From Catelliglobosispora koreensis DSM 44566 (GTDB lineage Bacteria > Actinomycetota > Actinomycetes > Mycobacteriales > Micromonosporaceae), in NCBI RefSeq assembly GCF_000379685.1, contig NZ_KB903251.1, positions 124,001 through 188,000 on the forward strand: a DNA stretch of 64,000 nt, in the 5' to 3' direction. Under the pieces are notes generated by a model that was given only the letters and a program-made list of their open reading frames with translations, was not told the origin of the DNA and made no database searches. The stretch's first letter is position 1, and each line of letters opens with the position of its first letter. A program made the position numbers and the translations under genes. Shown piece after piece: positions 3,082-54,449 of the stretch.

Positions 3082-4590
3082 TCAACTCCTTTCCAGGAGC
3101 GACTCTTCCAGATCCATGTCCCGTTGTGCCCGAACTAGGACACGTTCTGTGATGCGTCCCTCATCGCGGGCGATCCGGAATACTTCACGCTCGGCTTCGA
3201 GCATCGCCCGCCGCAACCTTACATAGGCTTGAGAGGGAGTCTCGCGGTTGCCGCCAAGGCGCTCCCAGGCCATATTCGTGCGCTGCTGGGTCAGACTGCT
3301 CAAGCGTTCGACCACGTCCGCTGGCGCGGTCGCGGCGAGTTTTTCGAGCGCTTGCCGGGCGGCGGCGCTGGCCTGGTGCTGAACCGCCGCTTCGGCCAGC
3401 ACCTCCTGCATCGGGTCATCCATGGGCGGCTTCACGAGCCGGGCGAAGGCAGGCAGCGTCAGTCCTTGCCCGACAAAGGTTCCCACGATGACGGCGAAGG
3501 CAAGCCAGATAAAGAGCTCCCGGGGGTACTCCATCCCGCCCACGTCATTGGGTAAGGCAAGCGCGGTCGCCAGGGTGATCACTCCCCGCATGCCGGCCCA
3601 GGAAGCGACGGCGGCCACTCGTTTCTGCTTCCATGCGGTCACGAAGACCCAGATGAAGCGGGTCAGGATGACCGTCCCCAAGACCGCTGCCGTGAGGGTG
3701 ACGACCCTCCATATTGGAGTGTCCAGTTCTTTGATGACACTGCGCAGCTGAAGGCCGAGCACGAGGAAGATGACACCTTCGAGAAGGAACGTGGTCATCT
3801 TCCAGAACGCGCCCATTTGCAACCGGGAGGCCGCGGACATCAGCGTCGGCCACTTGTGCCCGAGGGCGAGTCCGGTGACCACAACGGCCACCAGGCCGGA
3901 GGCGTGCAGGCGTTCCGCGAACAGCATCACGGCGAACGGGGTCAGCAGGGAAATAGTGTTGTCCAGCAACGGATTCGTCGTCTTGCGGTGCAAGAACCCG
4001 AACACGATGGCGCCGAGCACGCCAATGGCTATACCGCCGCCAGCGGCCAAGGCCACCTCGGACACGATTTCGCCCGCGCTCACGGCTGATCCAGCCGCCG
4101 CCAAAAGCGCGACCCGGAAGATGACCAAGGCCGTGGCGTCGTTGACGAGACTCTCGCCTTCCAGCACGGTCACCAGGCGATTGGGTAAGCCGATGCGCCG
4201 GGCGATCGCGGTCGCCGCGACCGCGTCGGTGGGGGCGACCGCTGCTCCTAGGGCCAGGCAGATCGCGAGCGGCACGCCAGGCACCATCGCGGCCACGACA
4301 TAGCCGACGGCAACCGCTGTAAAGATCACGAGCCCGATGGCGAGGAAGAGGATGGGACGCAAGTTGAACCGGAAGTCCGGCACGGACGTCTCGATCGCCG
4401 CCACATAAAGCAGGGGCGGCAGCACACCGACGAGCACCAGATGCGGGTCAAGCGAAGGAACGGGGAACCCGGGGACCAGCGCCAGCACGATGCCAGCGAG
4501 CACCAGCAGGATCGGGCTAAGCAGCCGAAGCTTCCCGGCCACCGCCGAGACGGCCACGACGATCGCGATCAGTCCAACGAGCTGTTCCAT
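3082..4590 (-). CDS. CPA1-family Na+/H+ antiporter
   Basis: This 502-residue polytopic membrane protein starts MEQLVGLIAIVVAVSAVAG and has about 12 hydrophobic segments up to residue 400. The conserved antiporter core is seen in GAAVAPTDAVAATAIARR and EGESLVNDATALV, which hold the ion-translocating Asp and Asn-Asp residues of the NhaP/CPA1 type. A cytosolic tail rich in Arg and Glu follows. It probably exchanges Na+ (or K+) for protons to control pH and salt. The ATG at 4590 leaves 42 bases to the divergent alditol oxidase. An in-frame extension further upstream would run into that gene. Confidence 0.9.
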   Translation of the reverse strand: MEQLVGLIAIVVAVSAVAGKLRLLSPILLVLAGIVLALVPGFPVPSLDPHLVLVGVLPPLLYVAAIETSVPDFRFNLRPILFLAIGLVIFTAVAVGYVVAAMVPGVPLAICLALGAAVAPTDAVAATAIARRIGLPNRLVTVLEGESLVNDATALVIFRVALLAAAGSAVSAGEIVSEVALAAGGGIAIGVLGAIVFGFLHRKTTNPLLDNTISLLTPFAVMLFAERLHASGLVAVVVTGLALGHKWPTLMSAASRLQMGAFWKMTTFLLEGVIFLVLGLQLRSVIKELDTPIWRVVTLTAAVLGTVILTRFIWVFVTAWKQKRVAAVASWAGMRGVITLATALALPNDVGGMEYPRELFIWLAFAVIVGTFVGQGLTLPAFARLVKPPMDDPMQEVLAEAAVQHQASAAARQALEKLAATAPADVVERLSSLTQQRTNMAWERLGGNRETPSQAYVRLRRAMLEAEREVFRIARDEGRITERVLVRAQRDMDLEESLLERS

Positions 4591-4632: not shown

Positions 4633-5811
4633 GTGCGGAAAAACTGGGCTGGCAATGTCACCTACAGCGCTCGTGCGTTTCACGAGCCAACGACCGTGGC
4701 ACAGGTGCAATCGGTGCTGGCTAGCAGCGATCGGGCGCGGTTCCTTGGTACCCGCCATAGTTTCAATGGTCTTGCCGACACCGACGGCGACTTGATCTCG
4801 CTGGCCGGGCTGACGTCGGTGGTGGAAATCGACTCCGTGGCCATGGCGGCCAGGGTGCCGGGCGGCATGCGTTATGGCGAGCTGGCTGAACATTTGCACG
4901 GCGCGGGTTACGGGCTGCACAACTTGGGATCCTTGCCACATCTGTCGGTCGCAGGGGCGGTAGCGACCGCCACACACGGCTCCGGCACAGCCAATCTGGC
5001 CACCGCCGTGTCCAGTTTGGAGGTGGTCACAGCGCTCGGTGAAGTCATCGAGCTTTCCGGTGCTGGGGTGCCGGTGTCGCTGGGGCTCCTGGGCGCCGTT
5101 ACCGCGCTGACGCTAAAGCTCGAACCAGCCTATGAGGTGCGCCAGTTTGTCTATGACGATGTCGCCGGCCCGTGGCGCGACGTGCTCTCAGCCGCTTACA
5201 GCGTCAGCGTTTTCACCGCTTGGGATGGCCGTTACCAAGCGTGGGTGAAGGCCCGCGACGACTTTCAGGCTCCAGCGTCCTGGCGCCTGGCCGACGGTGA
5301 GCGGCATCCGATCCGGGGCGTATCCGCGCAGGCGTGCACAGCGCAGGCAGGCGTGCCCGGGCCGTGGCACGAGCGGCTGCCGCACTTCCGGCTCTCGCAT
5401 ACACCGAGCGCTGGAGCGGAGCTTCAGTCAGAGTTCTTCGTGCCGCTCGCGGACGCCGAGGCCGCGATCGAGGCGATGGCGAGCATCGGCGAGCGCCTCC
5501 GGCCGGTGCTGCTGATCTCCGAGTTGCGCACGGTTCTCGCCGACCGGCTGTGGCTGAGCCCGGCTTATGAACGCGACTGCCTCGCGATTCACTTCACCTG
5601 GACCCAGGACACAGCCGCGGTGCTGGAAGCGATCACGCTGGTGCAGGACGTGCTGCGGCCGTTCGCGCCACGCCCACACTGGGGCAAAGTGTTCACGATG
5701 CCGATTAGCGGGCTGTATCCCAAACTTGCCGATTTTGCGGCGCTCATCAGGGCATATGACCCTAAAGGCAAGCTGCGCAACACTTTTGTTAACACTATGC
5801 TTGCCGAATGA
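4633..5811 (+). CDS. xyoA: FAD-linked alditol (xylitol) oxidase
   Basis: This 392-residue flavoprotein closely matches the actinomycete AldO/XyoA type, which oxidises the terminal hydroxyl of xylitol, sorbitol and related polyols and makes H2O2. The N-terminal block NWAGNVTYSA, the covalent-FAD site GTRHSFN (His42), the LPHLSVAGAVATATHGSG signature and the C-terminal RPHWGKVFT are all present. The start is taken as GTG at 4633 because family similarity begins two codons later. There is no clear ribosome site, so the message may be leaderless. The stop overlaps the start of the acetyltransferase gene by four bases (ATGA). Confidence 0.9.
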   Translation: MRKNWAGNVTYSARAFHEPTTVAQVQSVLASSDRARFLGTRHSFNGLADTDGDLISLAGLTSVVEIDSVAMAARVPGGMRYGELAEHLHGAGYGLHNLGSLPHLSVAGAVATATHGSGTANLATAVSSLEVVTALGEVIELSGAGVPVSLGLLGAVTALTLKLEPAYEVRQFVYDDVAGPWRDVLSAAYSVSVFTAWDGRYQAWVKARDDFQAPASWRLADGERHPIRGVSAQACTAQAGVPGPWHERLPHFRLSHTPSAGAELQSEFFVPLADAEAAIEAMASIGERLRPVLLISELRTVLADRLWLSPAYERDCLAIHFTWTQDTAAVLEAITLVQDVLRPFAPRPHWGKVFTMPISGLYPKLADFAALIRAYDPKGKLRNTFVNTMLAE

Positions 5812-6317
5812 TCATCCTTGAGCCGTGGGCAGCCGGTGACTTCTGGCTGCTCGAGGCCACTAACTCGCCGGACATGACCCGGTTTCTCGGCGGGCCGGAA
5901 AGTGACGGGCAGCTGCGCCTGCGTCACGAACGTTACGTGCGGCTGACCCGCACCGGCCCCGGCTGCATGTACCGGGTCGTGCTCGAAGAAAGCGGCGAGA
6001 CCGCTGGCAGCGTTGGCTTCTGGGAGCGCGAGTGGCAGGACAACAAGGTCTACGAATGCGGCTGGGGCATCCTTCCCGCCTTTCAGGGCAAGGGAATCGG
6101 GGTCGCCGCGGCACTGGCGGTCGCCGAGCACGCCCGCCTCGCCGGTGCGCACCGCTATCTGCACGCGTTTCCTGACACCGAACATGCCGGCTCCAACGGG
6201 ATCTGCCGCAAGGCGGGCTTTGTCCACATGGGAGTGTCAGACTTCGAATACCCCAAGGGGCACTGGAAGAAGGCTCACGACTGGCGGCTCGACCTCAGTC
6301 CCAGCGAGCAGCGTTAG
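5808..6317 (+). CDS. GNAT family N-acetyltransferase
   Basis: This 169-residue protein resembles the RimJ/RimL branch of GNAT enzymes, which transfer acetyl groups from acetyl-CoA to amines. The acetyl-CoA loop corresponds to LPAFQGKGIGVAAALAVAEH (about 85-104). The C-terminal NGICRKAGF block is the usual substrate-side motif. It is translationally coupled to the alditol oxidase gene by an ATGA overlap. Its 3' end overlaps the convergent VOC gene by 23 bases. The substrate cannot be read from the sequence. Confidence 0.85.
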   Translation: MIILEPWAAGDFWLLEATNSPDMTRFLGGPESDGQLRLRHERYVRLTRTGPGCMYRVVLEESGETAGSVGFWEREWQDNKVYECGWGILPAFQGKGIGVAAALAVAEHARLAGAHRYLHAFPDTEHAGSNGICRKAGFVHMGVSDFEYPKGHWKKAHDWRLDLSPSEQR

Positions 6318-6675
6318 CGTCGTTGAGCGTGCCCTGCGGCACCGGGATGACACAGAACAACAGGCCCGCCGGGTCACGCATGATCTTCCAGTGACCCGCC
6401 TCCTGCGCCACTGTCGCGCCAAGGGCTTGCAGGCGTGCGACTTCGGCGTCGAGGTCGTCGGTGTGGATGTCTAGGTGCACCCGGCTTTGACCTTCGGTCA
6501 GCTCTTGCACCAGCACACCGAACTCTTTGTGGTGCAAATGGGCGCCGTGAAACTCCGGGTATTTAGCGAACTGTTCCATCGGCAGGCCAAGCGCGCCTTG
6601 CCAGAACTCCAGACCCTCGTCGTGCACGTCGGAGGGCAGGTCGATCACCACTTTGGAGAGGTGGCTGTAGTGCAT
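6295..6675 (-). CDS. VOC-superfamily (glyoxalase/bleomycin-resistance fold) protein
   Basis: This 126-residue single-domain protein starts MHYSHLSKVVIDLP. It shows two beta-alpha-beta-beta-beta units typical of vicinal-oxygen-chelate proteins, with possible metal ligands in the histidine-rich EFHGAHLHHKEFG and in RVHLDIHTDDLDAEV. The second half ends GHWKIMRDPAGLLFCVIP. The family includes lyases, dioxygenases and antibiotic-binding proteins, and the specific job is unknown. The ATG at 6675 has an AAGGGG sequence just upstream. It converges with the GNAT gene. Confidence 0.8.
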   Translation of the reverse strand: MHYSHLSKVVIDLPSDVHDEGLEFWQGALGLPMEQFAKYPEFHGAHLHHKEFGVLVQELTEGQSRVHLDIHTDDLDAEVARLQALGATVAQEAGHWKIMRDPAGLLFCVIPVPQGTLNDANAARWD

Positions 6676-6717
6676 GTTTCCCCTTTCACGGCGACGGCCC
6701 CAGGCTAGCCTGAGCCT

Positions 6718-6999
6718 ATGACACAGGCGGGATGGACGGGCGTGCTGCAGGCCGTGACCCCCGCAGGTGCGCTCGCTCGCCCTCGGCGCGCAGGAGCTGC
6801 TCGGCAGTGTGCTCAAGGACGCGTCGCAGGAAACCGATGTGACGGCGAAACTGCTCGCCTTCACCTACGCGCCGGAGACTGCACGGGTTTGCTCGAAGGA
6901 ACGGGAAAGAAGGCCCGGCACATCAAGATCAGCGCAACTGAGCAGCTCACGGACCCTCGCGTACGGCAGCTGATCGAGGCGGCGGCAGCACTGAGCTAG
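6718..6999 (+). pseudogene. DUF1801-type protein, double frameshift and internal deletion
   Basis: The conserved pieces lie in two frames. MTQAGWTGVLQAVTP is in frame 1, VRSLALGAQELLGSVLK and TAKLLAFTYAPETA in frame 2, and GLLEGTGKKARHIKIS back in frame 1. One extra C in the C5 run at 6758-6762 and one missing G in the GGG at 6885-6887 would explain both shifts. The repaired product would be 93 residues. Compared with DUF1801 proteins as I know them, the repaired product also seems to lack about 30 residues in the middle. So even without sequencing errors the gene is probably degenerate. Its function is unknown in any case. Confidence 0.6.
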
Positions 7000-16539: not shown

Positions 16540-16673
16540 GCCTCCAACCTACCGGAGCCGAGGCGGGTGTCAGGAGGTTGACTGTGGGCTTTGAGATTTC
16601 TTTGATCCCACCTTGAACCTCGTGACCAAGATGTTTCCCGCTGCCGGCGAAAGGCGCACCTTCCCGGACAGCA

Positions 16674-45899: not shown

Positions 45900-45962
45900 C
45901 AGAAAGTTGCCGCTGTCGGCTTGCCGCCAGCGGCCAGCGGGCACTGCTCTTATGGTGGGGCG

Positions 45963-48900
45963 GTGCCTTCGCGAAGTGAGTTCGGCATCCTTGGATGTGT
46001 CGAAGTCGCTGGGCCGCAAGGCCCCGCAGACCCGCTCGGTGCCCGGCACCGGGCTCTGATCGCCGCCTTCGCCTTGCGGCCAGGGCAGACCGTGCCCCGC
46101 CGGCGTCTCGTCGAGGCGCTGTGGGGCGAGGACCCGCCACGGACTGCCGTGAAATCATTACACAGCCACGTCGCCAGGCTTCGCATTGTGCTGGAGAAGT
46201 GTGGCGCTGGCGGTGTCCTGCAAACGCGTGGGCAGGACTATGCCCTGTGCGTTGACCCGGTTTCGGTTGACGCCGGCCGCTTCGAGCAGCAGCTGCAGTC
46301 TATCCGAAAAGGACTGTCCAAAGGCGAGGTGGAAGAAGCGCTTGACGCCCTGGCGCACGCGCTGGGGCTGTGGCGTGGAGAGGCGCTCGCCGACGCCGAG
46401 CCGACCGGGTGGATGGCGGCTGAGGCGGCACGGCTGGACGGGCTGCGGTCGGCGGCATTGGCCGACCGGTGTGAGGCGATGCTTAGCCTCGGGCATTACG
46501 GTCCCGCCCTGAGCGAGGTCGAGCGGTTGCTGGCGACCGACCCGTTGCGGGAACGCCTCACCGGGCTGCACATGATCGCGCTGTGGGGCTGTGGCCGGCC
46601 CGCTGAGGCGCTGGACGCCTATCAGCGGCTGCGCCAGGACTTGGCCGAGGAACTCGGCGTTGATCCCTCACAGGAGCTTCAGGGCTTGCACACGTCCATG
46701 TTGCGCGGTGTCGCGGCCGGCGAGCTGCGGGCACCGGGAAGTGTCGTGGGTGCACGCCGGCCGCCGGTGCAAGTGGCTCCCGCGCTGCGCCCGGCGCAAC
46801 TGCCCGCGCCGGTGGGCTACTTCACGGGACGGGCACGGGAGCTGGGTGCCCTGGAAGAAGTCCTGACTAGCGATTCCCCTGTGGTCGCGCTGATTTGCGG
46901 GCCGGGCGGGTTTGGCAAGACCGCGCTGGCGGTGCAGTGGGCGCATCGCGTCGCGGCAAGGTTCCCTGACGGACAGTTGTTCGTGGACGCTCGCGGGCAC
47001 GATAAGGCCAGCGCCATGACGGCTGTGCAGTTAACCGGCGTGCTGCTGCGCTGCCTGGGAGTCGCCGAAGACCGCCTGCCGCCGGACTTGAGTGAACGCG
47101 TAGGTCTCTACCGCAGTTTGCTCGCGGGTAAGCGAATGCTGATCGTCATCGACAACGCCTGCAACACCGAGCAGATCGCCCCACTGATTCCCGGATCGGC
47201 GGCCAGCCAGCTCGTGGTCACGAGCCGGGCTAGTCTTGCCGCGCTCGTCACGCACGCGGAAGTGCGGTACGTCGCGCTGGAAGCCATGTCAGCGGCAGAG
47301 GCCGGAAACCTGCTGGCCAAGGTGATCGGCCCGGAGCGCATCGCTCATGAAGTGCTTGCGTCGCAACACCTCGCCGAGCTGTGCTCACGGATGCCCTTGG
47401 CCCTGCGGATCGCCGCGGCCAAACTCGCGGCTCAGCCGGCCCGCGCGATCAGTGCCTTCGTCGCTGAGCTGTCGGCCGGGGACCGGCTCGCGCAGCTGGG
47501 GATCGAAAACGGAACCCGTTCGGTAGAAGCCGTATTCGCGAGTGCCTACAGCGCGTTGTCGCCGACGGGACAGCGCCTGTTTCGCCGGCTGGGGTTGCAC
47601 CCTGGCCCCCACCTAAGCCTCGGCCTGGCGGCCGCTTTAACGGCGACCCCATCGGCTATGGAAGAACTGGTGGCCGCCCATCTGATCGCCGAAGTCCAGC
47701 CCGGGCAGTTTCGCTTTCACGACCTCATCCGGATCTTCGCCTACGAGTGTGCGCTGCGAGACGAGGCACCGGCCGCCCGTGACGAGGCCATTCAGCGCGG
47801 CTTGGAGTGGTATCTCACCGCCGCACAGGCGGGCAGTCAGCTGCTGGACAACAGTCACGACTTGATCGTGCCGACATTGCGTTTCGCGCCCGCACCGCGT
47901 CCTTTCGCACCAGCCCGGGAAGCGGCTCTGTCCTTTCTGGACACTGAGCGTGACAATCTTCAGGCCGTGGCGTCGTTCGCTTCCGCTAACGGCCACTTCC
48001 GCATGGTCTGTGAGCTGACCTATCTGCTGGCGAGCTACTTCGACGCACGCGGAAGCTGGCTCGACCGCATCGAGATGTGCCAGCTCGCGGTCGCCGCGGC
48101 GCAAGAACTCGCGGATGTCAGGGTCGAAGCGGAGATGCACCGTGCGCTCGGGGCCGCTTATCGCTTCACCTATCAGCTGCGGCCGGCCTTAGACAGCCAC
48201 CTGCGGGCTTTGGAGTTGATGCGAGACACCGGTGACGACAAGGGCTTGGCCTACGTATACAACAACATTGGCGGGGCACGGGTCGAGTTGCGCCAGTTCG
48301 ACGAAGCGGTCGCGGCGTACCAGTTGTCATCTCGGCTGCATCTGAAAGCCGGCAACCAGCACGGGGCCGCGGTGGCGCGGCGCAACCTCGGCTACACCTA
48401 TATCCGGATGGAGCGGGCCGACCTGGCTTTGAGCTGCCTGGCCGAGGTGCTCGACACGAGTCGTGCCATCGGCCATCAGCGGGTGGAAGCCGGCACCCTC
48501 GACAGTCTGGGCGAGGCCTACCTGCAGCTGGAGCAGTTTGGCAACGCCCTGGAGTGCTTTCAGCAGGCCCTCTCGGTCAGCCGTGCGATCGGCAACCGCC
48601 GGTACGAGATGGACGCCCTGGCCAACATCGGCCTAGCTCACCTGGGCAGTGGTGCCATCAGCTGTGCGCTCGAATCGTTCGCCGCTGCGCTGGCGTTAAG
48701 CCGCGAGCTGGGTCACAGACACGCGGAGGCCCGCATCCTGCACGACATCGCCGAAGCTCACGTGCGTCACCACGAGCCTGGCATAGCGCGGAGGTTTCTT
48801 TCCGCCAGCGCGGTCCTGCGTCAGTCCATTCCGGACAGTTATGAGCAGGCGCGGTGGCACCGGACCTTCGGTGAAGTTTGCCTGCTGGAAGGCTCTGTTA

Positions 48901-49052
48901 GCCATGCGCGCGAACATTGGGAAAAGGCGGCCGGCCTGTTTCGCGCGGCCGGAGCCGGGAAACAGGCCGATCAGCTTGTGTCGCAACGGGTTCAGCTTGC
49001 GGGAATGACCGCTTTGGTGACCGCTTTGGTGATAACACCAGCGGATGGCTGA
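45963..49052 (+). CDS. AfsR/SARP-type regulator (winged helix, BTAD, NB-ARC, TPR)
   Basis: This 1029-residue regulator has an N-terminal OmpR-like winged helix (about 5-95, with the RRRLVEALWGEDPP block), a BTAD (about 100-250), an NB-ARC ATPase with P-loop GPGGFGKTA (about 313-321) and Walker B LIVIDNA, and a TPR array (about 690-1000). This is the layout of AfsR, a global activator of secondary metabolism and development. ATP and partner binding should control DNA binding. The start is taken as GTG at 45963 after GGTGGGG. The 3' end overlaps the convergent Calx-beta gene by 61 bases. It probably acts on the 11-nt arrays nearby. Confidence 0.9.
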   Translation: MPSRSEFGILGCVEVAGPQGPADPLGARHRALIAAFALRPGQTVPRRRLVEALWGEDPPRTAVKSLHSHVARLRIVLEKCGAGGVLQTRGQDYALCVDPVSVDAGRFEQQLQSIRKGLSKGEVEEALDALAHALGLWRGEALADAEPTGWMAAEAARLDGLRSAALADRCEAMLSLGHYGPALSEVERLLATDPLRERLTGLHMIALWGCGRPAEALDAYQRLRQDLAEELGVDPSQELQGLHTSMLRGVAAGELRAPGSVVGARRPPVQVAPALRPAQLPAPVGYFTGRARELGALEEVLTSDSPVVALICGPGGFGKTALAVQWAHRVAARFPDGQLFVDARGHDKASAMTAVQLTGVLLRCLGVAEDRLPPDLSERVGLYRSLLAGKRMLIVIDNACNTEQIAPLIPGSAASQLVVTSRASLAALVTHAEVRYVALEAMSAAEAGNLLAKVIGPERIAHEVLASQHLAELCSRMPLALRIAAAKLAAQPARAISAFVAELSAGDRLAQLGIENGTRSVEAVFASAYSALSPTGQRLFRRLGLHPGPHLSLGLAAALTATPSAMEELVAAHLIAEVQPGQFRFHDLIRIFAYECALRDEAPAARDEAIQRGLEWYLTAAQAGSQLLDNSHDLIVPTLRFAPAPRPFAPAREAALSFLDTERDNLQAVASFASANGHFRMVCELTYLLASYFDARGSWLDRIEMCQLAVAAAQELADVRVEAEMHRALGAAYRFTYQLRPALDSHLRALELMRDTGDDKGLAYVYNNIGGARVELRQFDEAVAAYQLSSRLHLKAGNQHGAAVARRNLGYTYIRMERADLALSCLAEVLDTSRAIGHQRVEAGTLDSLGEAYLQLEQFGNALECFQQALSVSRAIGNRRYEMDALANIGLAHLGSGAISCALESFAAALALSRELGHRHAEARILHDIAEAHVRHHEPGIARRFLSASAVLRQSIPDSYEQARWHRTFGEVCLLEGSVSHAREHWEKAAGLFRAAGAGKQADQLVSQRVQLAGMTALVTALVITPADG

Positions 49053-51176: not shown

Positions 51177-51219
51177 TGCGGCAAGCTAGCGCCCAGGCCG
51201 GTGACGTGGCAACAGGTTT

Positions 51220-51252
51220 TGTGACCTGCCTTTGAGTCGGCTTTGAAGCCAC
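51220..51252 (+). promoter_or_regulatory. 11-nt repeats upstream of a small secreted protein
   Basis: TGTGACC (51220), TTTGAGT (51231) and TTTGAAG (51242) are exactly 11 nt apart. A -10-like CATAGG (51266-51271) follows, so transcription would start close to the ATG at 51281. The sequence of the repeats resembles that of the array at 27811. Confidence 0.45.
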
Positions 51253-51280
51253 CATGAAGCGCATCCATAGGTTTGCCCGT

Positions 51281-51760
51281 ATGAAACGTCTCGCGTTACT
51301 AGCCACTGTCCTAACCGCGACAGCAGCCGCGGTTCTCGTTGGTGCGGCGCCCGCGGCGGCCGCGGTCGAGCTGAACTGCACCACCAGCACCTACACCATC
51401 CCCGACCCGTTCAACGGCACCCACACGGCCAGCTACGTTGGCAGCTACTGGACCCTTGGCGGGACGTGGCGCGTCTGGCACTTCACGTCCAACTACGGCT
51501 CCGGGAATATCTACAACGGAGCTGGCGCGGCCCGGTGCGACGCGTCTGGCCACCAGCTCAGCTGGACTGACCTGACCCGCGAAACGCTGACGGCCAGCGA
51601 CCATCCCAAATGCGGCACGACGAGCTACACCGTCGGCGACGACAGCTATACCTACCTCGGCAGCCGGTACAACAACGGCGACAGGTTCCGCTATTGGGGG
51701 CAGACGATCCAGTCGGGAATGATTCTGTTCCGTGGCGTCGCCGCGGCGCGCTGCGACTGA
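51281..51760 (+). CDS. Small secreted protein with an internal duplication
   Basis: This 159-residue protein has a signal peptide (MKRLALLATV to about 28, ending AAAA). The mature part consists of two similar halves, each ending in AARCD (GAGAARCD and GVAAARCD) and each with a GS(Y/R)-aromatic motif (GSYWTLGG and GSRYNNGD) and a Cys near its start. The four cysteines suggest two disulphides. I see no known family. The ATG at 51281 is chosen for the signal peptide and promoter spacing. An earlier ATG at 51254 touches the repeat array. Confidence 0.75.
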   Translation: MKRLALLATVLTATAAAVLVGAAPAAAAVELNCTTSTYTIPDPFNGTHTASYVGSYWTLGGTWRVWHFTSNYGSGNIYNGAGAARCDASGHQLSWTDLTRETLTASDHPKCGTTSYTVGDDSYTYLGSRYNNGDRFRYWGQTIQSGMILFRGVAAARCD

Positions 51761-51825: not shown

Positions 51826-52422
51826 TTACAGTGCTCGCTTGGCGGCTATTTCGGCGTACGCCTTGGTGAACTCGCGCAGCGCGGCGGCACGCCAAGGGTG
51901 GGGGTCAGGCTCGGCGAAGGAGCGCTGCAAAAGGGTGAGCCCATCGGACAGATCCTGGTCCGCGGCCGCCAGCCACGCCCGGTGCGCGGGAACGGTGGTC
52001 TGCTTGAGCTCGTCGTAGTAGCCAACGACACCGGGGCGGACACTAGCCGACCCGAGACTGCGCGCGGCGGAGCTGAACGCGCTCATGGCTTCCTGCTGCA
52101 GCTTCGCGGCGGCTGCCGGATCGCGCTGGATGTGCGCGTCACTCATCTTGGCCAGCCCGGCCGTGAGCTGCTCGTGGAACGCCTTGTCCACGGCCGCGGG
52201 CAGCGACACCGACGTGCCGAGGTCGATCTCCCAGAAGCACCGCTCACAGCCGATGATGCCGTCGATCTGGTCGATCCAGAACCACTTCTGCAGTTTGTCG
52301 CCAACCTGACTGATGACGTAGTACTTCTCGAGCCTCGGCACGGCCTGGGCCGGAGCCTGAACGAGCGTGGTAGCCACGACCGCTGCCAGGATCGTCGCAG
52401 CGAAGCCGGTGAATCGCTTCAT
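51826..52422 (-). CDS. Secreted helical protein of unknown function
   Basis: This 198-residue protein has a signal peptide (1 to about 27, ending APAQA). A mature domain follows with one CERC motif (IIGCERCFWEID) and long helices rich in Ala, Gln and Leu (LPAAVDKAFHEQLTAGL, KLQQEAMSAF). I do not recognise the family. The CxxC pair could be a disulphide or a metal site. The start at 52422 has AGG upstream. It is divergent from the second BTAD regulator, and a strong 11-nt repeat array lies in the 98-base spacer. Confidence 0.72.
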   Translation of the reverse strand: MKRFTGFAATILAAVVATTLVQAPAQAVPRLEKYYVISQVGDKLQKWFWIDQIDGIIGCERCFWEIDLGTSVSLPAAVDKAFHEQLTAGLAKMSDAHIQRDPAAAAKLQQEAMSAFSSAARSLGSASVRPGVVGYYDELKQTTVPAHRAWLAAADQDLSDGLTLLQRSFAEPDPHPWRAAALREFTKAYAEIAAKRAL

Positions 52423-52463
52423 CACATCACCTTTCCTATCGGAGGCCACCAGCGTCTCTGTCG

Positions 52464-52507
52464 GGATCACGGCTGCTTCAAGGCCTGTTCTGGGCCGGTT
52501 CACGGTG
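52464..52507. promoter_or_regulatory. Four tandem 11-bp units, SARP- or PHO-box-like operator
   Basis: Four contiguous 11-bp units read GGATCACGGCT (52464), GCTTCAAGGCC (52475), TGTTCTGGGCC (52486) and GGTTCACGGTG (52497). Each matches the shared pattern GGTTCACGGCC at 8 or 9 of 11 positions. They lie between the BTAD regulator and a divergent secreted protein gene. The pattern resembles both the PHO box (11-nt direct repeats with GTTCA) and AfsR sites of Streptomyces. Confidence 0.65.
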
Positions 52508-52520
52508 GCAAGGTGGGCGA

Positions 52521-54449
52521 ATGAGGGTGTTGGAGTCCAAACCCGATTTCAGTACCATTGACGCTTTGCTGCTATCGGGCGATATCGATGGTCTGCTTGA
52601 CGAGTTCGCTGACCTCGGCGACCGGCTACCGGCCGGGATGGCGTGGAGAGTCGGGCTCACGCACTACCTGCTTCGTGGTTCCCCGCGAGACGCGCTACGT
52701 GAACTGTCCAAAGGGGACGTCGGTGCGGAGAAGACCGCCGATGAGGCGATTCTCCTGGGCTGGCTGGCCTCGGTGCACTGGGCGCTGGGTGATCTCGAGG
52801 CATGCACGCGTGATGCCGAGCGGGCTTTCCTTGCCGCGCAAGCGTCTGGCTCGTGTCAGGCCAAGGCCGCCGCGCAGGTGAGCCTCGGATTGCGGGCGAT
52901 GCTCGCGGGCGACCGGGTGGGCAACGCGGCCCACTATGCCAAAGCCCTTCGTTATGCCTCCGCCGCCGCGGACAGCCTTCAGATCATCCGGGTACGCATG
53001 AACCGTGCCGCGCACTTCGGAGATGAAGGCAACTATCGCGAAGCGCTGGACGACTTGGCCGAAGCGGTCAAGCTCGCGACCGAGATCGGAAACCCGGTGC
53101 TGCTGGGCGTGGCTCTCACCAACGAAGGTGACACGTTCAGCGCCATGGGCCAGCTCGGTGAAGCCGTTAGCCGTTTTCACCAGGCGACACAGCTGTTTCA
53201 GCAAGCGGGCTCGGGCAAGGTGTCCTTCTCCCTGCTCAGTTTGGGTGACGTTCAGCGCCGTCGCGGGCAGCTCGCGTTGGCGCAAGCCGCTTATGAGGAA
53301 ACGATTCCGCTAGCGGAGGCGCACGGCCATACCCAGGTGCTCGTCGCGGCGCTTGCGGGACTTGCCGAGACTGTCTGCGAAGCCGACCCGGAAACGGGAC
53401 TACAGCTTGCCTCCCGGGCGCACAAGGAGGCGGTAGGTCCTTTCACGACAGTCGCGCTTTTGGCTCTGGCCAAGGCCACACTGGCGAGCGGAGATGTGGA
53501 ACGTGCCGGGCAGTTGGCCATCGAGGCCCAGCGGTCGGCGCGGGCCCACCGCGACCGGGCTTCCATCGCTCGCGCGCTGGAGCTTCAGGCACAGGTGTGC
53601 GCTGACTGGGAACGAGCCGGCCGTTATCTGGCCGAGGCCCGGGGAATTTGGATCGACCTTGGCTCAGCGTTTGACGCCGAGCGCGTCACTGTCGTTTTAG
53701 GAGACCACAGTCCGCTAGCTGTCGGACCGGTCGCTATCAGAACGCTGGGGCGATTTGAGGTTAGCGTTGGCGGTAAGCCGCTGCCGCCCTCGGCGTGGCA
53801 ATCACGCAAAGCCCGGGATCTGTTGCGGTTGCTTGTCGGGCGGCGAGGCCGGCCGATCGCCCGGGAGGAACTCGTCGACCTGCTGTGGGCCGACGAGCAA
53901 GGCGTGAGCACGGAAAAGCGCCTGCACCGGCTCGCTGTGGCACTTTCCATCGTGCGCGGTGTCGTGGATGGCCCGCGACAGTCCTCATCGGACAGTGTGG
54001 TGCTCGCCGACGGCTCAAGCATCGCCCTGGACACCAGCCGGATGAACATCGACCTGGAAACCTTTATCCGGCAAGCAGAACACGGGCTGCGATTGCATCG
54101 CGCGGGCAAGACCGACGATGGCCTGGCCGTGCTCATCGGGGCAGAACGCCGGTATACCGGGGATTTCATGGAGGACGAACCCTACGAGGCGTGGACGAGG
54201 GTTCCGCGCGAACTCGCTCGCGCGACCTATCTCAGGGTCGGGCGGGTGCTCGCCGAAGCCGCATTGCGCCGGTGCGACACCGACGAGGCGATCCACTATC
54301 TGCTGCGCATCCTGGCCGTCGACGGTTATGACGAGCAAACGCATCTCGACCTCATTGAGTCCTATGCCAAAGCGGGCCGCCACGGTGAGGTCCGGCGGGC
54401 GAGGGAACGCTACGCCGGGGCGATGGCTGAACTCGGCGTCACCGTTTAG
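52521..54449 (+). CDS. TPR regulator with C-terminal winged helix and BTAD, no ATPase
   Basis: This 642-residue protein has TPR-like helices (about 1-390). An OmpR-type winged helix (about 400-490, TLGRFEVSVG, SRKARDLLRLLV and REELVDLLWADE) and a BTAD at the C-terminus follow. The C-terminal third closely matches that of the regulator at 24740-27805, so they are paralogues. The ATPase part is missing here, and the protein is about 380 residues shorter. It is divergent from a secreted protein gene with an 11-nt operator array between them, which suggests control of that gene and itself. Confidence 0.85.
   Translation: MRVLESKPDFSTIDALLLSGDIDGLLDEFADLGDRLPAGMAWRVGLTHYLLRGSPRDALRELSKGDVGAEKTADEAILLGWLASVHWALGDLEACTRDAERAFLAAQASGSCQAKAAAQVSLGLRAMLAGDRVGNAAHYAKALRYASAAADSLQIIRVRMNRAAHFGDEGNYREALDDLAEAVKLATEIGNPVLLGVALTNEGDTFSAMGQLGEAVSRFHQATQLFQQAGSGKVSFSLLSLGDVQRRRGQLALAQAAYEETIPLAEAHGHTQVLVAALAGLAETVCEADPETGLQLASRAHKEAVGPFTTVALLALAKATLASGDVERAGQLAIEAQRSARAHRDRASIARALELQAQVCADWERAGRYLAEARGIWIDLGSAFDAERVTVVLGDHSPLAVGPVAIRTLGRFEVSVGGKPLPPSAWQSRKARDLLRLLVGRRGRPIAREELVDLLWADEQGVSTEKRLHRLAVALSIVRGVVDGPRQSSSDSVVLADGSSIALDTSRMNIDLETFIRQAEHGLRLHRAGKTDDGLAVLIGAERRYTGDFMEDEPYEAWTRVPRELARATYLRVGRVLAEAALRRCDTDEAIHYLLRILAVDGYDEQTHLDLIESYAKAGRHGEVRRARERYAGAMAELGVTV

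What the first reader, a model, noticed from the sequence alone, without database searches (positions are those of the whole stretch)
52464..52507. Four tandem 11-bp units upstream of a TPR/BTAD regulator
Direct reading gives four contiguous units, each matching GGTTCACGGCC at 8-9 of 11 positions, between the BTAD regulator (52521) and a divergent secreted protein. Such phasing fits an OmpR-type winged helix binding head-to-tail. It may be an autoregulatory site of the BTAD protein, an AfsR site, or a PHO box. If the first, it would describe the operator of a regulator type without known sites.
Basis: partly seen in the sequence, partly recalled or inferred. Interest (0 to 1): 0.72.

Follow-up and report, generated by a model that had tools for sequence, protein, structure and literature searches.

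The report
Repeat-array switch for secreted-protein gene
Four head-to-tail 11-base repeats sit in front of a gene for a small exported protein; the same arrangement recurs beside many related regulators in this bacterial family, so it is probably the landing site through which that little-studied regulator type switches on exported proteins.

Summary
The array at 52464-52507 is real: it is the best 4x11-bp tandem in the 64-kb window, 0 of 2000 shuffles of its intergenic region reach its score, and it is conserved in two other genera in the same divergent gene pair. A PHO box is unlikely: the genome's own Pho promoters carry GTTCACC units and score far higher. Read toward the divergent secreted-protein gene the array becomes a promoter: CNNTGA units every 11 bp, 10 bp, then a -10 hexamer. 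A second secreted gene in the window has the same (array 51219-51257), as do others elsewhere. A 4-unit pattern fitted to seven such sites hit, among 354 family genomes, only the four with a close ortholog of the 52521 regulator, plus one site near another C-terminal-BTAD gene. Around 60 C-terminal-BTAD genes, 11-bp-phased CNNTGA triplets are enriched over other periods, with a -10 at gap 10 or 11 in 38 of 41; 20 further loci agree. Best reading: a SARP-type activator box for secreted proteins, bound by C-terminal-BTAD regulators. Binding is inferred, not shown.

The parts
52464..52507 (-). Operator array: four 11-bp units; read toward the secreted gene CCGTGA-N5-CCCAGA-N5-CCTTGA-N5-CCGTGA (unit cores 52467-52505)
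   Evidence: conserved in G009 and G222 (37 and 33 of 44 bases identical, 32 of 44 identical in all three)
52451..52456 (-). Putative -10 hexamer GACGCT of the secreted gene, 10 bp after the last unit; GATCCT in G009, GATGCT in G222
51826..52422 (-). Secreted protein P0002 (198 aa, signal peptide by inspection, no Pfam family), probable target
52521..54449 (+). Regulator P0001: TPR, C-terminal winged helix, BTAD; 642 aa, shorter than its roughly 1000-aa relatives; probable binder of the array
52509..52514 (+). CAAGGT (CAGAGT in G009 and G222): possible -10 of the BTAD gene itself, 1 bp after the array; speculative
   Evidence: inspection
51219..51257 (+). Second array of the same type, TTGTGA-N5-CTTTGA-N5-CTTTGA-N5-CCATGA
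51268..51273 (+). Putative -10 hexamer TAGGTT, 10 bp after the second array; the ATG follows 7 bp later (leaderless mRNA likely)
51281..51760 (+). Second secreted protein P5 (159 aa), probable target; at E 1e-8 its family is found in 3 of 354 genomes: this one, Rhizocola (G041, two copies) and G018 (partial match)
16589..16616 (+). Third CNNTGA triplet of the window (exact, CAAGAT at gap 10), without a secreted gene downstream; status unclear

Best explanation
The array is a SARP-type activator box. The C-terminal winged helices of the divergently encoded TPR/BTAD protein (52521) bind the four 11-bp units side by side, one protomer per unit on one face of the DNA. The two promoter-proximal units fall at about -39 to -23 of the secreted gene's promoter, where RNA polymerase would otherwise need a -35 element, and BTAD recruits polymerase to a poor -10 (GACGCT). 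This switches on the secreted protein 51826-52422 and, through the second array, the secreted protein 51281-51760, plus a few others in the genome. The N-terminal TPR domain presumably senses the signal. Shown by sequence: array, conservation, promoter geometry, recurrence beside the regulator family, co-occurrence with the regulator. Inferred: that this protein binds, that it activates rather than represses, and what the signal is.
For: (1) The 4-unit TCA pattern occurs without mismatch once per genome in G000, G009 and G222, each time between P0001 and P0002 orthologs. (2) A 4-unit pattern with -10, allowing 1 mismatch, gave 8 matches in 354 genomes: 7 in the four genomes with a close P0001 ortholog (at least 798 bits; next best 627) and 1 in G410, 1.9 kb upstream of the matched part of another C-terminal-BTAD gene; the reversed-pattern control gave 2. 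(3) Two trans sites, G041:C8 (upstream of a P5 paralog) and G000:C1 (upstream of secreted P0004), were found by patterns without the -10; with the P5 site found by inspection they show the same N10 and xAnnnT geometry. (4) In 60 C-terminal-BTAD loci CNNTGA x3 at period 11 gives 18 exact and 44 one-mismatch hits, against 0 exact and 1-13 one-mismatch hits at periods 9, 10, 12 and 13; xAnnnT follows at gap 10 or 11 in 38 of 41 merged arrays, 31 of 34 after removing near-identical ones, and no other gap from 0 to 39 exceeds 4. 37 of 41 pass a crude secreted-start filter that 670 of 4000 random positions pass. (5) Twenty further loci: 16 hits at period 11 (5 exact) against at most 6 (0 exact) at other periods. 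(6) The model of P0001's C-terminal 248 residues has AfsR-SARP and EmbR as its top five Foldseek matches, aligned over nearly its full length, though weakly.
Against: No binding or expression data. The pattern was fitted to the seven sites, so only its rarity elsewhere is independent. 23 of 60 and 11 of 20 C-terminal-BTAD loci show no array at the threshold used, including the five group-B loci where a P0002 homolog does face such a regulator. Loci are related (many from one genus), so arrays are not independent, and some of the 20 further loci carry arrays identical to ones in the first set. Control loci (59, 194 kb) have 0 exact and 4 one-mismatch hits at period 11, but 3 exact and 12 one-mismatch at period 12. 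At least three of the 37 secreted-like starts (L222, L224, L252) look like wrong reading frames. The G222 ortholog of P0001 has no BTAD although its array is intact. In Rhizocola (G041) the sequence directly upstream of the regulator is degenerate. Other C-terminal-BTAD paralogs of G000 could share the sites. The structure model's winged helix is low confidence; Foldseek gives no match at E 0.001, TM 0.34-0.36 by query, rmsd about 15; the Trans_reg_C score is below its cut-off.
Confidence: 0.7

Rival explanations
1. The array is mainly an autoregulatory operator of the BTAD gene 52521, repressing or activating its own promoter (+ strand -10 CAAGGT).
For: Its last unit ends 13 bp before the 52521 ATG; CAAGGT/CAGAGT is conserved next to the array in three genomes.
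Against: The geometry toward secreted genes recurs at trans sites with no BTAD gene recognised next to them (G000:C1, G041:C8), and in G041 the array lies before the neighbouring secreted gene rather than directly before the regulator. Both functions may coexist.
Confidence: 0.3
2. It is a PHO box bound by PhoP (11-bp direct repeats with a TCA core).
For: Period 11 and the TCA core; only 57 of 127,958 22-mers of the window score as high or higher with a PHO matrix.
Against: pstS and phoU of the same genome score 31.3 and 25.5 against 2.7; pstS promoters of six genomes carry tandem units matching GTTCACC at 12-14 of 14 positions; the pattern is missing from 349 of the 350 family genomes without a close P0001 ortholog, although pstS and phoU were present in 6 of 6 genomes checked (phoP itself was not searched).
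Confidence: 0.03
3. It is a site of AfsR or of the neighbouring N-terminal SARP (45921-49052).
For: AfsR boxes are 11-bp direct repeats at the same promoter position (PMC10936776, passages); the 45921 gene is 3.4 kb away.
Against: No P0003 homolog in the fetched loci of G009, G222 and G041; the motif differs from the CGTT(T/C)ATCGNN given for AfsR (PMC10972967, passages). G000 has 34 BTAD matches, so other SARPs cannot be excluded one by one.
Confidence: 0.1
4. The array is a chance or compositional periodicity.
For: TRF is blind to it; single consensus matches are common.
Confidence: 0.01

Closest known systems
SARP-activated promoters, in particular the AfsR afs box at afsS (S. coelicolor)
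   Same: Head-to-tail 11-bp direct repeats bound by a winged helix plus BTAD protein; box overlapping the -35 and spacer region (AfsR box -40 to -19; here the two proximal units about -39 to -23); 3' repeat about 8 bp from a suboptimal -10 (PMC10936776, passages).
   Different: Three or four units rather than two; motif CNNTGA read toward the gene; regulator with winged helix and BTAD at the C-terminus; targets are small secreted proteins rather than antibiotic genes.
PHO box (PhoP, actinobacteria)
   Same: 11-bp direct repeat units, TCA core, winged-helix binder (PMC4415409, passages).
   Different: GTTCACC core absent; matrix score far below the genome's own Pho promoters.
SARP-LAL and large SARPs (PimR, AfsR type)
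   Same: BTAD plus TPR or ATPase modules; PimR sites have three heptamers with 4-bp spacers (PMC10972967, passages).
   Different: The classes described in the passages seen of PMC10972967 have an N-terminal SARP domain.

Membership tests
SARP binding box | direct repeats with 11-bp (or 22-bp) spacing | tested here: met
SARP binding box | 3' repeat about 8 bp upstream of the -10 element, overlapping the -35 region | tested here: met
   predicted -10 hexamer 10 or 11 bp after the CNNTGA hexamer, i.e. 8-9 bp after an 8-bp unit, in 38 of 41 arrays and at the window's two arrays; transcription starts not mapped
SARP binding box | bound by a SARP/BTAD protein that activates transcription | not testable with these tools
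   needs footprint and transcription assay
SARP family regulator (P0001) | winged-helix DNA-binding domain followed by BTAD | tested here: met
   BTAD 35.2 bits over the 22.1 cut-off; Trans_reg_C 20.4 bits, below its 26.2 cut-off; top Foldseek hits AfsR SARP and EmbR, weak
SARP family regulator (P0001) | SARP domain at the N-terminus | tested here: not met
   domain order TPR, winged helix, BTAD
PHO box | GTTCACC-like units matching the organism's own Pho promoters | tested here: not met
AfsR site | CGTT(T/C)ATCGNN direct repeats | tested here: not met
   sequence against the consensus quoted in PMC10972967

The most novel reading that the evidence does not exclude
Across Micromonosporaceae a class of C-terminal-BTAD regulators (sensor modules first, SARP domain last) works through a standard promoter module: three or four CNNTGA units every 11 bp, 10 or 11 bp, then xAnnnT. 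Each controls one or a few adjacent, often divergent, genes for small secreted proteins, some on leaderless mRNAs, so that these SARP-like proteins govern the secretome rather than antibiotics.
Probability: 0.6. Interest if true: 0.7.

Novelty: new variant of a known kind. Interest (0 to 1): 0.62.

Why it matters
It gives a predicted operator, promoter and target set to a regulator type that did not appear in the listings of the searches I ran in the held paper library. It links SARP-like activation to secreted proteins of unknown function. The module is simple enough to predict targets of such regulators in other genomes and to test by swapping arrays between regulators.

Tried and rejected
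PHO box: matrix and direct comparison speak against it. The per-unit PHO scores are one base out of register and were not used; only the best score over all offsets was. Group-B divergent pairs (G056, G222-C11, G218, G090, G407) have conserved intergenic TCAAA/TCCGG elements, but period 11 is not convincing there (4x11 p 0.009 to 0.11) and none of the five has an array. The divergent pairs with N-terminal SARPs (G009 C2:1066822, G060; domains) carry other 11-bp repeats; they support the general principle but are not the same motif. Upstream regions of 29 BTAD genes of G000: a few show 3x11 repeats of their own (L136, L140, L130), but period 11 is not generally enriched. Outside the family, 6 of 394 class genomes had relatives at E 1e-70; a scan of their loci for triplets with up to two mismatches gave one hit each in two loci and no -10 at the expected gap, so the module is not shown outside the family. 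Of the 10 matches, six are the sites discussed, one is G222:C6 upstream of ftsE, which does not fit the promoter geometry and is unexplained, and three two-mismatch matches (G009:C2:4446159, G222:C24, G041:C19) have no secreted gene at the right place. Of the 20 sites, five (G000:C2:608767, G018:C124, G222:C7, G009:C2:4071380, window 16581) have no secreted-like start within 75 nt. Four more matches (G000:C23:197042, G041:C110, G018:C454, G018:C458) were not read. A sequence-profile search of solved structures gave mainly TPR proteins and no SARP. In one search the script put P0004 in the wrong register, so it shows 6 of 7 for the -10 test; the pattern match and the table place CATCCT at gap 10 for P0004. 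Paper PMC4393881, the one hit, was not opened.

Full report
Observation. The four 11-bp units are at 52464-52507 as described. Their mutual similarity is the highest for any 4x11 tandem in the window; 0 of 2000 dinucleotide shuffles of the 98-bp intergenic region match it. TRF misses it; the units are only 6-7 of 11 identical to their neighbours.

Surroundings. To the right lies P0001 (52521-54449): TPR repeats, then a weak winged-helix match, then BTAD. The order is the reverse of ordinary SARPs. An AlphaFold model of the last 248 residues, from two sequences, is confident for BTAD and poor for the winged helix. Its best five Foldseek matches are AfsR SARP and EmbR over nearly the full length, but weak: E from 1.7e-3, TM by query 0.34-0.36, rmsd about 15. 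To the left, on the minus strand, is P0002 (51826-52422), with a signal peptide by inspection and no Pfam family. Convergent to it is a second secreted protein, P5 (51281-51760), also without Pfam family.

Conservation. Close P0001 relatives exist in three other genomes: G009, G222 and G041 (798-1330 bits; the next best relative has 627). In G009 and G222 the P0002 ortholog is divergent as here and the array is conserved, 37 and 33 of 44 bases; the pattern TCACGG-N5-TCAAGG-N5-TCYNGG-N5-TCACGG is found without mismatch once in each of G000, G009 and G222. In G041 no P0002 homolog was found at E 1e-8, the sequence before the regulator is degenerate, and good arrays instead precede the P5 homolog next to the regulator and a second P5 copy on another contig.

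Direction. Read toward the secreted genes, the units are CNNTGA (one unit at P0002 departs from it: CCCAGA or CCCGGA) every 11 bp. Ten bases after the last TGA comes a hexamer with A at position 2 and T at position 6: GACGCT, GATCCT, GATGCT at P0002 of three genomes, TAGGTT at P5, TACGGT at both Rhizocola P5 genes, CATCCT at P0004 (itself shows 6 of 7 because P0004 was misregistered). At P5, P0004, G000:C3:321855, G000:C40 and G018:C28 an ATG lies 6-8 bases after this hexamer, as in leaderless mRNAs.

Specificity. A 4-unit pattern with the -10, fitted to these seven sites, was run on 354 family genomes with one mismatch allowed. It gave 8 matches: 3 in G000, 1 each in G009 and G222, 2 in G041, and 1 in G410, where the site lies 1.9 kb upstream of the matched part of a C-terminal-BTAD gene; the reversed pattern gave 2. 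The first four are exactly the genomes with a close P0001 ortholog. With three mismatches in five genomes, further sites appear beside C-terminal-BTAD paralogs (G000:C40, G041:C9, G009:C2:969584) or before secreted genes (G000:C3:321855 and 321994, G018:C28, G041:C50), with 0 reversed matches. Of the 20 sites tabulated, 15 have a secreted-like start within 75 nt by inspection and 5 do not; four more matches were not read.

Generality. Eighty of the just under 100 C-terminal-BTAD places listed were fetched, mostly as 11-kb regions: 60 first, then 20 more after the rule was fixed. In the 60, CNNTGA x3 gives 18 exact hits at period 11 and none at periods 9, 10, 12, 13; with one mismatch 44 against 10, 3, 13, 1. 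In 59 control loci (194 kb) period 11 has 0 exact and 4 one-mismatch hits, while period 12 has 3 and 12. The 41 merged arrays lie in 37 of 60 loci; 37 of 41 pass a crude secreted-start filter, though at least three of these (L222, L224, L252) look like wrong frames. Of 4000 random positions 670 pass nearly the same filter (ATG and GTG only). Found without regard to the -10, 13 arrays have xAnnnT at gap 10 and 25 at gap 11 (12 and 19 of 34 after removing near-identical ones), while no other gap from 0 to 39 exceeds 4. In the further 20 loci: period 11 has 16 hits (5 exact), other periods from 7 to 16 at most 6 (0 exact); 9 of 20 loci carry 14 arrays, 10 with the -10 at gap 10 or 11 and 12 before a secreted-like start. 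These loci are not fully independent: many come from the same genera and some arrays repeat. Over all 80 loci, 29 of 55 arrays read divergently from the regulator on its 5' side, 12 lie on the same strand on its 3' side, and 14 are placed otherwise. Against the reading: 23 of 60 and 11 of 20 loci lack an array at this threshold, and the G222 P0001 ortholog has no BTAD match. No module was found at relatives outside the family.

Linked gene family. Among P0002 homologs in 354 genomes the ten best (E below 1e-17) all stand divergent to a BTAD-protein gene: eight to C-terminal-BTAD proteins or, in G222, to the BTAD-less ortholog of P0001 (positions, sequences), and two (G009 C2:1066822, G060) to N-terminal SARPs with NB-ARC. 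At five weaker homologs (L107-L111) no BTAD gene was recognised by inspection; the rest were not read. The two N-terminal-SARP pairs have their own 11-bp repeats, CTGTTGTG three times in G009 (0 of 2000 shuffles for 3x11) and a weaker form in G060. So the motif differs with the regulator while the 11-bp phasing stays, which is what an operator evolving with its own regulator would show. The five group-B pairs are not resolved.

What binds. PhoP: unlikely, given the genome's own Pho promoters. The 45921 SARP: no homolog in the orthologous loci fetched. AfsR: its consensus as quoted in PMC10972967 differs. P0001 or a C-terminal-BTAD paralog is the best candidate. The position, two proximal units at about -39 to -23 over a poor -10, matches AfsR's box at -40 to -19 (PMC10936776, passages read), which argues for activation by the SARP mechanism. 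This last step is inference.

Novelty. SARP boxes with 11-bp repeats are known; a C-terminal SARP class with three- or four-unit CNNTGA arrays before secreted-protein genes did not appear in the listings, or in the passages read of PMC10972967 and PMC10936776. Most subscription papers are not held. Hence a new variant of a known kind.

Noticed in passing
window 16589-16632: Third CNNTGA triplet of the window (exact, with CAAGAT 10 bp on), upstream of a lyase-like gene on the other strand and facing the 3' end of an LPRTG-type surface protein gene; no secreted gene downstream, only a strong hairpin.
   Followed up: partly
G222:C6:121315-121353 (L105 about 2016-2054): A one-mismatch copy of the four-unit TCACGG array lies between genes that look like prfB and ftsE in G222, and was not matched in the other three genomes searched; it does not fit the promoter geometry.
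   Followed up: partly
L066 (G222) 5169-6794: The P0001 ortholog of G222 ends after the winged helix and has no BTAD match, while its operator is intact.
   Followed up: partly
L103 2149-2238 and L104 2420-2490: P0002-family secreted genes divergent to N-terminal SARPs, with CTGTTGTG-type 11-bp repeats ending close to the SARP start codon.
   Followed up: partly
L205 about 3515-3600 (G000:C40): Two divergent secreted genes with back-to-back arrays, each with a -10 at gap 10 and ATG 7 bp later, next to a C-terminal-BTAD gene.
   Followed up: partly
L136, L140, L130 (upstream of BTAD genes of G000): CTTGCC, GTATAG and CTGT triplets at 11-bp spacing upstream of other BTAD genes: candidate operators of other regulators.
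   Followed up: no
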